From Longimicrobium sp. (GTDB taxonomy: Bacteria > Gemmatimonadota > Gemmatimonadetes > Longimicrobiales > Longimicrobiaceae): 64,000 nucleotides of DNA. Shown here piece after piece: positions 1,467-24,484 of the stretch (positions are counted from its first letter, which is position 1; each line of letters starts with the position of its first letter). Below the pieces are notes generated by a model that ran no database searches, was not told the origin of the DNA, and was given only the letters and a program-made list of their open reading frames with translations. The stretch covers positions 1-64,000 of the forward strand of contig DASVTZ010000217.1 in the NCBI GenBank assembly GCA_036387335.1, given 5' to 3'. The position numbers and the translations under genes were made by a program.

Positions 1467-1520
1467 GACGCGGGTGCCATGCGGTTGCGCTTGCCCCGCC
1501 ATCAACGCGGACAGATGTTC

Positions 1521-1549
1521 TTGTCTCGCAGTTCCGTTGAGGCTAATTT
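1521..1549 (+). promoter_or_regulatory. candidate sigma70 promoter for the subtilase
   Basis: TTGTCT (1521-1526) and TAATTT (1544-1549) are separated by 17 bp in a locally AT-richer stretch about 150 bp before the start codon at 1698. The -10 match is weak, so this is only a candidate. Confidence 0.35.
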
Positions 1550-1697
1550 ACCCCCTGCTGCTCTCCGTTCGCGTCGCACGGATCGCGGCAGCACACCGCT
1601 TCCTCCGTTCCAGCCCCACTCGCGTTCCCGCAGTCCCCCGCCGCTCCGCATCCCAGCCCGGCGGACGCGCACTTCATCTTTCCCTGGATGGCCCTCA

Positions 1698-4538
<2,841 letters not shown>

Positions 4539-20331: not shown

Positions 20332-20602
20332 GCGCATCTCCTTCGCTGGGGTTACTCGGGTGGACTCGCCACCCTCTGCAAGATGCGCCGCGCCCCACCC
20401 GCGCGACAGCCCCGCCGCTCCTTTCGCCGCGGCCGAGGACACTGCTGGCGAGCGGTGGCGCGGAGTGGTCAGTCTCGGCGCGCCATCTCTGACACCTCGT
20501 GCGAAACCGGGTCGAAATTGGCGCCCGGATCGCTTGCCAGCACGCAGCGGGACGGGTAGAGTTGTGCATGCGTAACGGGTCCACGGCGGCCAGGACTAAG
20601 CG

Positions 20603-20884
20603 ATGAGCGGAGTGGAGCTCGCCAAACTGGATGATGCGCTGGCTCGGCTGCTGGCGACGGACTACCTGGACGTCTCTCAGAAGATCCCGGTCGCCGTCCA
20701 GGCCGCGGCCGGGTCCCTGGAGGTGCTCGTCCAGGCGGTGAACGACAACGGTGGAACCGTCCGCCATGTGCTGGGCCCGCTGAACGCCATCGCGGCCTGG
20801 ATGCCGATGTCGGGTGTCGCAGCGCTCGCGGCGCTGGAGTTCGTGGAGGAGATCGAGATGGACAGGGTCATGCACGTGGCGTGA
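20603..20884 (+). CDS. stand-alone I9-like propeptide / subtilase inhibitor
   Basis: A 93-residue protein whose C-terminal half (LNAIAAWMPMSGVAALAALEFVEEIEMDR in two parts) aligns with the end of I9 propeptides, for example GFAANLSPAAVEQLRRNPQV in the subtilase at 1698. There is no signal peptide. The stop overlaps the start of the following S8 protease by 4 nt (GTGA). I infer that it is the propeptide, acting in trans as intramolecular-chaperone substitute and inhibitor of that protease. Free-standing I9 inhibitors of subtilases are known in fungi, but a dedicated overlapping bacterial pair is unusual. Confidence 0.72.
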   Translation: MSGVELAKLDDALARLLATDYLDVSQKIPVAVQAAAGSLEVLVQAVNDNGGTVRHVLGPLNAIAAWMPMSGVAALAALEFVEEIEMDRVMHVA

Positions 20885-22074
20885 CTCACGCGCCAACGGC
20901 GGATTACTCGGGCGGAATGCGACGGCGTTCCGCCCTTTCTTCATGGCTGCCTATGGAACGGGTGCGCGAGGCCATCCAGTGCGGCGGCGCGGGCGTGGAT
21001 GGGGGCGGTGTACGGATCGCGGTGCTGGACACGGGGATCGACCTGGATCACCCCGACCTCCACGGCAAGGTAGATCTGGAGAACAGCGCGTCGTGCTGCC
21101 TTTCGGCGTCGATCGCGGACGTGCACGGGCACGGAACTCACGTGGCCGGCATCATCGCGGGGAGCGGCGAGGCGTCTGGGGGGCGGTTCGCCGGGATCGC
21201 GCCGGGCGCCGAGCTGATCGTGCTCAAGGTGGGGAGCGGCATGACGGCCTACAGCAACGATCTCGCGCAGGCGGTGTTACGCGCGGTAGAGCTGGGGGCC
21301 GACATCATCAACTATTCGGGCGGCGAGCACGGGTTCGCCGCGGGTCCGCCGCCGTGGAAGTGGCCGATCCGGCTGAACAAGCGCGACGCGGCGTTCAGGT
21401 ACGCGGCGGAGCATGGGGTGCTGTGCGTGGCCGCCGCCGGAAACGACGGGCCTTCGCCGGGCACGGTTGTGCGGCCCGGCAACCTCTCCGAGGTGCTGTG
21501 CGTCGGTGCCCTGGCGCCGCCCGACTTCCGGGTGGCGCCGGCCTCCGGGCGTGGGCCGCTATACCTGGACGGTTCGATGAGGGGCGGGGTGGCGCGCGCG
21601 GATCCGGGGCTGGACACGAGGTCGCGCCTCGTCAAACCGGACGTCGTGGTGCCTGGCGGCGAGCCCTCGGACTTCCTCCACCAGGCGCTTCACCTTGCCG
21701 GGATCGGGCGCGGCGGCGTGGTCGCGCCCCGCTCACGCCGCGGAATCCTGGTGGGGATCGATCCGGGCGACCCCGAGTGCGCCTACGCCCGCGTGGTGGG
21801 CACCAGTCAGGCGACGGCCGTGGTCACGGGTCTCGCCGCCCTCCTCCTCCAGCTTGGACGGCGCATCGGGTTCGATTGGGGCTCCAACACAGGGCGTGCG
21901 CTCGCCGGTATACTCCGCGCCGCGGCGCTGAGGCTTGCCGAAGGCGGACCCGACGACTACGGCTACGGAGCTCTCCTGTGGCCGAACATCGCCGCGACGC
22001 TGAACGACTGCGCGACCAACCCCGTGCGGCGAGAGAGGGTGCTGTTCGGGCCGCAGCTCCACCTCGAGACGTGA
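20881..22074 (+). CDS. S8 subtilisin-like protease lacking signal and propeptide
   Basis: A 397-residue S8 protease with full triad: D50 in VLDTGID, H84 in HGHGTHVAG, S309 in GTSQATAVV, and oxyanion N188 in AAAGNDG. There is neither a signal peptide nor an I9 domain at the N-terminus, so it is probably intracellular and depends on the separately encoded I9-like protein upstream. It starts at GTG overlapping that gene by 4 nt. The segment 210-305 contains acidic and Gly-rich loops not typical of secreted subtilisins. A regulatory or quality-control protease is the likely role; the target is unknown. Confidence 0.88.
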   Translation: MTHAPTADYSGGMRRRSALSSWLPMERVREAIQCGGAGVDGGGVRIAVLDTGIDLDHPDLHGKVDLENSASCCLSASIADVHGHGTHVAGIIAGSGEASGGRFAGIAPGAELIVLKVGSGMTAYSNDLAQAVLRAVELGADIINYSGGEHGFAAGPPPWKWPIRLNKRDAAFRYAAEHGVLCVAAAGNDGPSPGTVVRPGNLSEVLCVGALAPPDFRVAPASGRGPLYLDGSMRGGVARADPGLDTRSRLVKPDVVVPGGEPSDFLHQALHLAGIGRGGVVAPRSRRGILVGIDPGDPECAYARVVGTSQATAVVTGLAALLLQLGRRIGFDWGSNTGRALAGILRAAALRLAEGGPDDYGYGALLWPNIAATLNDCATNPVRRERVLFGPQLHLET

Positions 22075-22098
22075 CCTGCTCCTACGGGCTCTGATTGT

Positions 22099-23679
22099 TC
22101 ACCGCACGTTGCGCCAGCGCCCTATCGCGGGGGGCTGCACGGGTTGCGGAAGGGAGAGCATGTAGTCGATCAGGACGTTCAGGTCCACCAGGCCGGTGGC
22201 GGTGCGGCGGCCGGCGGCGAGGGAGGTGTAGCGCTCGCCGCCCTGCGCCATGAACTCGGTGAGGCCCAGCGTCACCCGGTCCGCGTCGGCCAGCTCGCGG
22301 CCGCCGTCCAGGCGCACGGAGCGGATGCGGCTTCCCTGCGGCGCCGCAGAGTCGTAGGCGACGGTCATCCCCGAGAGGTGCGCCGTGGGGCGTCCGCTGG
22401 CGACGGCGTTCTCCAGCGCGCCGCGGAGCTGCGCGCCGGTGACTTCCACGCGGTACACGGCGTTCTGAAAGGGCTGCATCTCGTAGAGCACCCCGTAGTT
22501 CACCGGCCCCTCCGGGAGCCCGCGGCGGATGGAGCCGTTGTTGATGATGGACGCCTGTGCCCCCGCCGCCCGGCGGACCGCGTCCGCCACCAGGTTGCCC
22601 AGCGGACGCTCCCGCCCCTGGTTGATGAGCGCCTGCGCCGTCGTCAGCACCACGCGCTCGGTGAGGGGGCGCACGTTCGCCTCCCACTGGTGCACCACGC
22701 GCTCGACGGCGGTGTCCGGCGTGACCTCGTCGGCGTAGGGGGTGCGGACGGCGCGGTACGACACGCGCGTGCGCCCGCCGCTGCGCTCCAGGTCGGTGAC
22801 GCTGTACGCGGCGCCGTACGACATCGCCTCGACGACGGGGACGCCGCCGGCCGTGGACAGCACGCGCAGGTGCGTGTGGCCGCCGACCACCAGGTCCACC
22901 GGCTCGGTGAGGGCGCTCGCCACGTCCAACATCTCCCCCGCGCACTCGCGCGACTCCTCCTCGGGCGCGGCGCCGGGGGAGCGGCACTCCGCGCCGATGT
23001 GCATCGTGACCACCACGAAGTCCACGCCGGCTGCGCGCAGCTCGCGCACCGCCTGGTCGATGGCGGGAACCGCGGGGCGGAACTCCAGCCCCGTCACCCG
23101 CCCGGGCACCACCATCTCCGGCGTGTTGGGAAGGGCGATCCCCACCACCCCGATACGGACCCCCCGCCGCTCGATGATCGTGTACGGCTTCACCCACTCC
23201 GCGCGGCGCCCGGTGGAGGCCTGGTACAGGTTGGCCGCCACCCAGGGGAAGCGGCTCTCGCGCATGCGGTTGCGTAGCGTGTCCTGCCCCCAGTCGAACT
23301 CGTGGTTCCCCGTCGCGGCCACGTCGTACCCCATCGCGTTGAAGGTCGCGATGGTGGCGCGCCCCCAGCTCAGGTTGGAGATGGCCGTCCCCTGCATGTC
23401 GTCGCCAGCCGAGAGGAAGATGGTGGCTCCCGGAAAGTGCGCGGCCGCGCTGTCGAAGTGTGCGGCGATCACGGCGGCCCCGCCCGCGGCGCGCGTCTCG
23501 CCCGAGCGCGGCGGCTGGGGCAGGATGCGCCCGTGGATGTCGTTGGTGTGCACCACCCGCAGCCGCTTCACCCCCGAGGGCGCGGCGGCGGAGGGGGTCT
23601 GCATCGCGGGAGCACAGGCGCCCCCCAGGAGGAGCGCGAGCGCGACTCCCAGAGGCGCGGTGGAGCGGAACCGGTTCAT
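22099..23679 (-). CDS. lipoprotein 5'-nucleotidase / UshA-type metallophosphoesterase
   Basis: An exported phosphoesterase of 526 residues that probably hydrolyses nucleotides outside the cytoplasm. It has a lipoprotein signal (LLLGGAC), then the calcineurin-like metal domain with VHTNDIHGR, SAGDDMQG, TGNHEFDWG, VTMHIG and VVGGHTH. The C-terminal 5'-nucleotidase domain (about 330-515) begins near ERPLGNLVADAVR and includes INNGSIR and YEMQPFQN. The start at 23679 is just before the signal peptide. It ends 24 bp from the convergent subtilase gene. Confidence 0.92.
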   Translation of the reverse strand: MNRFRSTAPLGVALALLLGGACAPAMQTPSAAAPSGVKRLRVVHTNDIHGRILPQPPRSGETRAAGGAAVIAAHFDSAAAHFPGATIFLSAGDDMQGTAISNLSWGRATIATFNAMGYDVAATGNHEFDWGQDTLRNRMRESRFPWVAANLYQASTGRRAEWVKPYTIIERRGVRIGVVGIALPNTPEMVVPGRVTGLEFRPAVPAIDQAVRELRAAGVDFVVVTMHIGAECRSPGAAPEEESRECAGEMLDVASALTEPVDLVVGGHTHLRVLSTAGGVPVVEAMSYGAAYSVTDLERSGGRTRVSYRAVRTPYADEVTPDTAVERVVHQWEANVRPLTERVVLTTAQALINQGRERPLGNLVADAVRRAAGAQASIINNGSIRRGLPEGPVNYGVLYEMQPFQNAVYRVEVTGAQLRGALENAVASGRPTAHLSGMTVAYDSAAPQGSRIRSVRLDGGRELADADRVTLGLTEFMAQGGERYTSLAAGRRTATGLVDLNVLIDYMLSLPQPVQPPAIGRWRNVR

Positions 23680-23965: not shown

Positions 23966-24484
23966 ATGATCGACTCCGCTGCCGCGCCCGCTCGTCCGAA
24001 CGACGATACGTACGAAACCTGCACGATCCAGCACGCCGGGTCCACCTACACCTTTCGCTTCTACAAGGGTTTTGCGAGCCGGGTGGTGTTCAACGCTCCG
24101 GACGGAACCCAGATCCCGGTTTACCAGCAGTCCGGCGTCTTCAAGTGCGAGCCCGCCGGCCCGGACCCGGACAGCACCATCAGCATCAAGGGCGGCCCCC
24201 TGGATCTGGACATCGAGGTGCAGATCAGCGACGGCCCCATCGGTCCGCCGGACTACGTGGGCCCCATCGCCGGCATCCAGATCGGGATGAAGAAGCGCGG
24301 CACCCCCGTATCGCCGCCGCAGCGCGTGACGCCCATCCGCGGCGCCGACCAGATCTCGCGCATCAACGTCAAGAACCGCGGCAACGGGGGCGGTGGCGGG
24401 GGCGGCGTGTACGCGCAGCAGCTCGACGACGGCGGTTGGCTGGACGTGACGAACACCGCGCAGTGCTGCCCGCCGCACTGCTGA
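23966..24484 (+). CDS. unrecognised protein with Gly run and C-terminal Cys cluster
   Basis: A 172-residue soluble protein with no signal peptide and a good ribosome-binding site (GAGGT). The N-terminal half is beta-rich (STYTFRFYKGFASRVVFNAPDG). A run of seven glycines lies near residue 146, and the chain ends with CCPPHC, which could bind metal or form disulphides. I do not recognise the family. The next gene, a seven-helix membrane protein, starts 40 bp downstream on the same strand and could be co-transcribed. Confidence 0.65.
   Translation: MIDSAAAPARPNDDTYETCTIQHAGSTYTFRFYKGFASRVVFNAPDGTQIPVYQQSGVFKCEPAGPDPDSTISIKGGPLDLDIEVQISDGPIGPPDYVGPIAGIQIGMKKRGTPVSPPQRVTPIRGADQISRINVKNRGNGGGGGGGVYAQQLDDGGWLDVTNTAQCCPPHC

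What the first reader, a model, noticed from the sequence alone, without database searches (positions are those of the whole stretch)
20603..22074. Split subtilase: I9 propeptide encoded by its own overlapping gene
A 93-residue I9-like protein without a signal peptide overlaps, by GTGA, an S8 protease that has the full triad D50/H84/S309 but no propeptide and no signal. The layout implies a trans-acting inhibitor/folding partner for an intracellular subtilase, like a toxin-antitoxin or zymogen-in-two-parts. The other subtilase in the window (1698) has I9 in cis. I know of stand-alone I9 inhibitors in fungi but not a dedicated bacterial gene pair of this sort; novelty is uncertain.
Basis: partly seen in the sequence, partly recalled or inferred. 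Interest (0 to 1): 0.7.

Follow-up and report, generated by a model that had tools for sequence, protein, structure and literature searches.

The report
Subtilase propeptide as a separate gene
A bacterium encodes the safety catch of a protein-cutting enzyme (its propeptide) as a separate gene just upstream of the enzyme; the split is real and shared by several related bacteria, it resembles a few known enzyme-plus-chaperone pairs, and in two relatives the catch is attached to a possible sensor protein.

Summary
The two genes exist as described, with one correction. The 93-aa protein (20603-20884) has the subtilisin-propeptide (I9) fold: a profile of its relatives finds subtilisin propeptides first in the PDB (best E 8e-5), and its AlphaFold model matches them (TM ~0.8). 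The next gene is a propeptide-less S8 protease with an intact Asp/His/Asn/Ser set. The 'GTGA overlap' is probably an annotation artefact. The likely start is ATG 20953, which is conserved; the nearest relative has no in-frame start codon further up, and a terminator-like hairpin lies between the genes.

The split is not an assembly error. Seven propeptide-less proteases form one clade (support 100/100), and six have an I9 domain just upstream: four as a small gene, two as the C-terminus of a TPR protein. All six I9 domains end exactly where propeptides are cut, so the gene break sits at the maturation site.

Best reading: a trans-acting propeptide (folding helper plus product-like inhibitor) for an intracellular subtilase. 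Docking is unproven; a single-chain co-fold of one relative did not reproduce it. Precedents exist (Aeromonas ASP/ORF2; eukaryotic I9 proteins), so this is a new variant of a known kind. The more novel lead is a four-gene GHKL-like/STAS-like/TPR-I9/S8 cassette beside CBASS-type genes.

The parts
20534..20562 (+). promoter-like site (TTGCCA-17-TAGAGT) 40 nt upstream of the small gene
   Evidence: the only site found, 0.1 expected in shuffles; consensus match only
20603..20884 (+). small gene: 93-aa stand-alone I9 (subtilisin propeptide-like) protein, no signal peptide apparent, ends at the propeptide P1 position
   Evidence: A4 profile vs PDB best 1spb_P E 8.4e-5; AF2 pLDDT 85; Foldseek to subtilisin propeptides, prob 1.00, TMt 0.77-0.81
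20910..20942 (+). terminator-like hairpin (11-bp stem 20910-20935, then TTTCTTC) between the two genes
   Evidence: fold z -3.5, gap z -2.6; comparable hairpin plus T-run in L022 (z -3.0) and L192 (z -3.6), absent in L191 and L024
20881..20952 (+). upstream extension of the S8 reading frame from GTG 20881, probably not translated
   Evidence: no in-frame start codon in the L022 counterpart; GC3 0.58 vs 0.87 in genes
20953..22074 (+). S8 protease, 373 aa, no propeptide, triad D26 (21028-21030), H60 (21130-21132), S285 (21805-21807), oxyanion N164 (21442-21444); family motif PWxW at 134-137
   Evidence: PF00082 E 6.7e-42; alignment A3; clade 100/100

Best explanation
The pair is a zymogen encoded in two genes. 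The small protein is a subtilisin propeptide (I9 domain) made as its own polypeptide; it binds the intracellular subtilase encoded next door, most likely helping it fold and then blocking its active site with its C-terminal tail, which ends at the position where ordinary propeptides are cut (P1), so no self-cleavage is needed. The protease would become active when the I9 protein is removed or titrated away. A terminator-like hairpin between the genes may keep the inhibitor in excess over the protease. Shown: both folds or families, conserved gene order, one clade of propeptide-less proteases, the C-terminus at P1, the hairpin. Inferred: binding, chaperone and inhibitor roles, cytoplasmic location, the trigger for release, the hairpin's effect.
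For: I9 identity: the profile of six I9 domains matches only subtilisin propeptides in its top 21 PDB hits; the four small proteins alone give the same list; AF2/Foldseek agree. C-terminus at P1: residues left after the aligned stretch are equal on both sides, 5/5 for 1spb_P, 8/8 for 1scj_B, 4/4 for Tk-subtilisin. The split is conserved in G011, G176 and G152 as small gene + S8, and in G018 and G009 as a TPR protein with C-terminal I9 + S8. In 117 relatives the strong I9 hits (E <= 1e-26) are exactly four, each next to a family S8. Seven proteases form one clade, 100/100. Selection: codon position 3 differs more than positions 1 and 2 in both genes vs L022. Trans action of propeptides is established: the CspB prodomain restores folding and blocks the active site in trans (PMC3567191); ASP/ORF2 (PMC5638518).
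Against: A single-chain AF2 model of the L023 I9 + linker + S8 folded both domains but not in the propeptide-like arrangement: alignments spanning both domains have rmsd ~15 A. One family member (L025) has no detectable I9 partner. L191 has lost all four catalytic residues yet keeps its small partner, so inhibition cannot be the only role there. L023 and L024 end in Asp, an unusual P1.
Confidence: 0.72

Rival explanations
1. Toxin-antitoxin or abortive-infection module: the subtilase is a toxin freed when the unstable I9 antitoxin disappears (phage attack or loss of the element). This can be true together with the best explanation.
For: Subtilase toxins with antitoxins exist (IetAS, SgiAT, mycoplasma pair). 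Four of seven loci lie near defence or mobile genes: L022 between hsdS and a DUF4145 gene; L023 by a SAVED-PDDEXK effector and an nSTAND protein; L024 by a SMODS nucleotidyltransferase and an MBL protein; L025 by an integrase. Sparse distribution: 7 of 394 genomes of the class.
Against: The window, L191 and L192 sit among ordinary chromosomal genes. The known subtilase antitoxins are AAA ATPases, not I9. No plasmid carries a full-length match. No toxicity data.
Confidence: 0.3
2. Two-part signalling protease: the I9 protein is the inhibitor of a specific intracellular processing protease (as in PopC/PopD or CspB), released by a stress signal rather than by phage or plasmid loss; TPR-I9 forms would bind the signal directly. 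Also compatible with the best explanation.
For: PopC lacks a signal peptide and is held by PopD until starvation (PMC6434023). TPR-I9 fusions with a GHKL-like and a STAS-like protein look like a signal-input unit.
Against: No substrate, secretion partner or expression data; PopD was not compared here.
Confidence: 0.35
3. Frameshifted or decaying ordinary subtilase (assembly error or pseudogene) whose propeptide has been cut off by mutation.
For: The window genome is in 265 contigs; L191 is a pseudoprotease.
Against: The split is at the same place in four genomes at 35-58% protease identity, with different spacers; catalytic residues are intact in six of seven; third-codon-position bias shows constraint.
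Confidence: 0.03
4. The small protein is an I9-fold protein unrelated to the neighbour (for example inhibiting other subtilases of the host).
For: No binding test; the same genome has a subtilase with I9 in cis.
Against: Gene adjacency in six genomes, absence of any other strong family I9 gene in 117 relatives, and lack of any other propeptide for the neighbour.
Confidence: 0.06

Closest known systems
Aeromonas sobria ASP / ORF2 external chaperone (PMC5638518; structure paper cited there, JBC 2015)
   Same: Propeptide-less subtilase with a separate chaperone-inhibitor in the adjacent gene; the chaperone's C-terminus lies at the catalytic site
   Different: ASP is an extracellular (secreted), kexin-like protease and ORF2 lies downstream; here no signal peptide is apparent, the I9 gene is upstream, and I9 similarity is detectable by sequence profile. 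Homology to ORF2 was not tested
Stand-alone I9 inhibitors: Pleurotus peptidase A inhibitor 1, yeast peptidase B inhibitor, Arabidopsis SPI-1, Toxoplasma MIC5, Plasmodium SUB1-ProM (PMC6993865)
   Same: Small I9-fold gene products that inhibit subtilases; SUB1-ProM lies next to subtilase genes
   Different: All eukaryotic, and SUB1 keeps its own propeptide; here the partner protease has none
Myxococcus PopC / PopD (PMC6434023)
   Same: Bacterial subtilase without signal peptide, held by a partner until a stress signal
   Different: PopD was not compared here; PopC is secreted
IetAS / SgiAT subtilase toxin-antitoxin pairs (PMC5006074, PMC8562856)
   Same: S8 enzyme with a dedicated control gene
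   Different: Control partner is an AAA ATPase; the S8 is ~750 aa; only weak S8-domain similarity
CspB / CspBA (PMC3567191)
   Same: Prodomain stays bound and its C-terminus blocks the active site; works in trans experimentally
   Different: Prodomain is encoded in cis and cut off by the enzyme
Intracellular subtilisins (ISP)
   Same: Cytoplasmic subtilisins without a classical I9 domain
   Different: ISPs carry only a short N-terminal extension and no I9 partner gene (established knowledge, not tested here); the family here has the PWxW insert

Membership tests
[quoted passage not shown]
   AF2 element order and Foldseek hits to subtilisin propeptides, TMt 0.77-0.81
MEROPS I9 / Pfam Inhibitor_I9 | sequence similarity to known propeptides | tested here: met
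   profile A4 vs PDB, best E 8.4e-5, top 21 all propeptides; but no hit to Pfam PF05922 by the single sequence
MEROPS I9 / Pfam Inhibitor_I9 | C-terminal tail in the active site of the cognate subtilase | tested here: inconclusive
   tail ends at P1 by alignment, but the co-fold of L023 did not dock it
Peptidase S8 (subtilase) | Asp, His, Ser triad plus oxyanion Asn in S8 motifs | tested here: met
   PF00082 E 6.7e-42; D26, H60, N164, S285
ASP/ORF2-type external chaperone pair | propeptide-less subtilase with chaperone-like protein in the adjacent gene | tested here: met
   gene order and lack of cis I9
ASP/ORF2-type external chaperone pair | extracellular (secreted) protease | tested here: not met
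   no signal peptide apparent in either protein (sequence inspection only); not filed as a member
ASP/ORF2-type external chaperone pair | partner required for folding and inhibits activity | not testable with these tools
   needs expression and assay
IetAS toxin-antitoxin | AAA ATPase partner | tested here: not met
   partner is I9; no AAA gene adjacent in the window by reading of the ORFs
IetAS toxin-antitoxin | toxic without partner | not testable with these tools
   needs expression
PopC/PopD | partner homologous to PopD | not tested
   PopD sequence was not compared

The most novel reading that the evidence does not exclude
The pair is the minimal form of an undescribed family of intracellular 'safety-catch' subtilases in which the propeptide became a separate regulator. 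Elsewhere the regulator is fused to a TPR sensor and joined to a GHKL-like ATPase and a STAS-like protein in a four-gene stress or antiviral module, and a pseudoprotease form (L191) keeps only the binding role.
Probability: 0.3. Interest if true: 0.78.

Novelty: new variant of a known kind. Interest (0 to 1): 0.5.

Why it matters
If right, a folding propeptide normally used once and destroyed has been turned into a separate regulatory subunit by breaking the gene exactly at the maturation site. That gives a natural split zymogen for studying how propeptides fold and inhibit subtilases, a bacterial counterpart of eukaryotic stand-alone I9 proteins, and a path from propeptide to sensor-coupled inhibitor (TPR-I9) that may mark an undescribed stress or immune protease module.

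Tried and rejected
(1) Pfam, NCBIfam and PADLOC scans of the small protein: no hit; profile methods were needed. (2) Scans of genome contigs and viral contigs with alignment A1 matched generic S8 motifs; none of the fetched loci outside the family carries the PWxW insert, so they were used only as outgroups. (3) Samples of three other phyla gave nothing at E <= 1e-50, but only the best 5-10 candidates per genome were scored, so this absence is weak. (4) Plasmids: only partial generic S8 hits. (5) Co-folding: alignments A7 and A9 misplaced the I9 rows and were dropped; A8 placed them (except their last nine residues) and was used, with I9-in-cis rows as bridges; the model did not dock the I9 domain. 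(6) An I9 partner for L025 was sought in all frames and not found. (7) Rfam: no real match in the region. (8) Frameshift or assembly error: rejected by conservation.

Full report
OBSERVATION. The window holds a 93-aa ORF (20603-20884) followed on the same strand by an S8 ORF ending at 22074. The S8 ORF matches PF00082 at E 7e-42 and has no I9 domain; the small ORF has no Pfam, NCBIfam or PADLOC match. The triad D50/H84/S309 is right in GTG numbering (D26/H60/S285 from ATG 20953), and the oxyanion Asn is present. Neither N-terminus looks like a signal peptide, by inspection only.

START SITE. The claimed GTGA overlap depends on starting at the first GTG. The homologous proteases begin at the column of ATG 20953 (MERVREAIQ; others MDEIRR, MKHVRE, MYAIRD, MERVRQ, MESVRT). 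In the closest relative, L022, the stretch between the end of the small gene and that ATG has no ATG, GTG or TTG in frame. In the window this stretch has GC3 0.58 against 0.87 in both genes. It contains an 11-bp hairpin followed by TTTCTTC (20910-20942), the only terminator-like site found in 20400-22300 (0.5 expected in shuffles; fold z -3.5). L022 and L192 have comparable hairpins with T-runs just before the ATG (z -3.0 and -3.6), L023 a hairpin without T-run, L191 and L024 none. I read the genes as non-overlapping, separated by a terminator-like element that could set inhibitor above protease; that role is inference.

I9 IDENTITY. A profile of six related I9 domains finds subtilisin propeptides as its 21 best PDB hits (1spb_P E 8.4e-5, subtilisin E, Tk-subtilisin); a profile of the four small proteins alone gives the same list (best E 0.0015). 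The AF2 model of the small protein (pLDDT 85, pTM 0.75) has the propeptide element order, and Foldseek's seven best hits are subtilisin-type propeptides (E 2e-3 to 1.5e-2, prob 1.00; the stand-alone propeptide chains among the top hits have TMt 0.77-0.81), ahead of generic ferredoxin-like folds. The same profile also finds, more weakly, domains inside large open frames of relatives; the two inspected (L211, L212) are N-terminal domains of large subtilase-like proteins, so the domain also occurs in cis.

CLEAVAGE-SITE REGISTER. In the PDB alignments the number of residues left after the aligned stretch is the same on both sides: 5/5 for BPN' (1spb_P), 8/8 for subtilisin E (1scj_B), 4/4 for Tk-subtilisin. 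All six I9 domains end at this last profile column. The reading frame therefore stops where a normal propeptide is cut, so the small protein would have the free C-terminus of an already processed propeptide.

CONSERVATION. They form one clade against 19 outgroup subtilases (100/100, in all 200 bootstrap trees). Three relatives have a small I9 gene just upstream: L022 (G011), L191 (G176), L192 (G152). Two have a ~510-aa TPR-like protein whose C-terminal domain is the I9 domain: L023 (G018), L024 (G009); the profile of the small proteins finds these C-termini as its best non-self hits in all frames (E 3e-5 and 7e-4), and hhalign gives E 6e-7 over residues 426-512 of 516. L025 (G005) has no detectable I9. 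In 117 relatives the strong I9 hits are exactly the four beside a family S8. The family is sparse: 7 of 394 sampled genomes of the class. Samples of three other phyla gave none, weak evidence because few candidates per genome were scored.

A PSEUDOPROTEASE. L191 has Asp to Cys, His to Leu, oxyanion Asn to Asp and Ser to Ala, yet keeps the small I9 gene and matches PF00082 (E 2e-29). This suggests that binding itself can be kept under selection, or that this copy is decaying.

SURROUNDINGS. The window's neighbours are ordinary: a DUF4442 protein upstream on the other strand and, by my reading of the ORFs, HMG-CoA reductase and 5'-nucleotidase genes. L192 lies near ATP synthase genes; L191 is followed by a Ser/Thr kinase gene. 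Four loci lie near defence or mobile genes: L022 between an hsdS gene and a DUF4145 gene; L023 close to a SAVED-PDDEXK effector and an nSTAND protein; L024 close to a SMODS nucleotidyltransferase and an MBL protein; L025 near an integrase. L023 and L024 share a four-gene cassette: a ~441-aa protein with weak GHKL ATPase similarity (HATPase_c E 0.083; 42% identical between the two), a ~135-aa STAS-like protein (DUF4325 at E 0.2 only), TPR-I9 and the S8. In 41 relatives the GHKL-like gene occurs only in those two genomes. The GHKL and STAS labels are tentative.

DOCKING TEST. I folded one chain from L023 in which the two stop codons between the I9 domain and the protease were read as Gly (P0003), with alignment A8. 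Both domains folded well (pLDDT 85.8, pTM 0.77), but PDB matches that span both domains (3afg, 3whi) have rmsd ~15 A, and TM-scores about equal those of the catalytic domain alone. The model therefore does not support propeptide-like docking. It is weak evidence against, because the linker is artificial, the alignment thin and its I9 rows misaligned over their last nine residues.

MECHANISM. Best reading: a split zymogen in which the I9 protein chaperones and inhibits the adjacent intracellular subtilase in trans. This follows known behaviour: the CspB prodomain supplied in trans restores folding and blocks the active site through its last residues (PMC3567191). What releases the protease is unknown; TPR-I9 suggests that a sensor can be attached to the catch. 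Toxin-antitoxin or antiviral use is possible but unproven.

COMPARISON AND NOVELTY. Aeromonas ASP/ORF2 is the closest precedent and shows that a separate propeptide-like gene for a bacterial subtilase is known; related operons occur in four other genera (PMC5638518). Stand-alone I9 proteins are known from fungi, yeast, plants and apicomplexans (PMC6993865). PopC/PopD shows a signal-less bacterial subtilase held by a partner (PMC6434023), and IetAS-type pairs show subtilase toxins. New here: an apparently intracellular family with a sequence-recognisable I9 domain upstream, ending at P1, plus the TPR-I9 variants. Hence 'new variant of a known kind'. My literature searches covered open-access papers only.

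Noticed in passing
L023:5744-10196 and L024:7087-11503: Conserved four-gene cassette: GHKL-like protein, STAS-like protein, TPR-I9 protein, S8 protease; both copies lie near CBASS-type genes (SAVED-PDDEXK; SMODS nucleotidyltransferase). The GHKL-like, STAS-like and I9 parts have no PADLOC model match.
   Followed up: partly
L191:7577-8635: Family member with all four catalytic residues replaced (pseudoprotease) that keeps its small I9 partner and is followed by a Ser/Thr kinase gene 15 nt downstream.
   Followed up: partly
L022:448-4814: The I9/S8 pair sits between an hsdS gene plus a DUF429-like gene and a DUF4145 gene, as if inserted in a type I restriction locus.
   Followed up: partly
window 1479-4538: Large S8 protease with I9 in cis, BACON, PPC and fibronectin III domains; an ordinary extracellular-type subtilase.
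   Followed up: yes
L025:7767-8804: Family S8 with intact triad but no detectable I9 domain upstream, near an integrase gene.
   Followed up: partly
L036 and L079 (Lachnospiraceae): Short S8 proteases (~300 aa) without propeptide starting MDRVKR/MNRVKQ, outside the family clade; probably intracellular-subtilisin-like. Upstream genes not examined.
   Followed up: no
window 23966-24484: 172-aa protein with no Pfam match and a glycine-rich stretch before a Cys-containing C-terminus.
   Followed up: no
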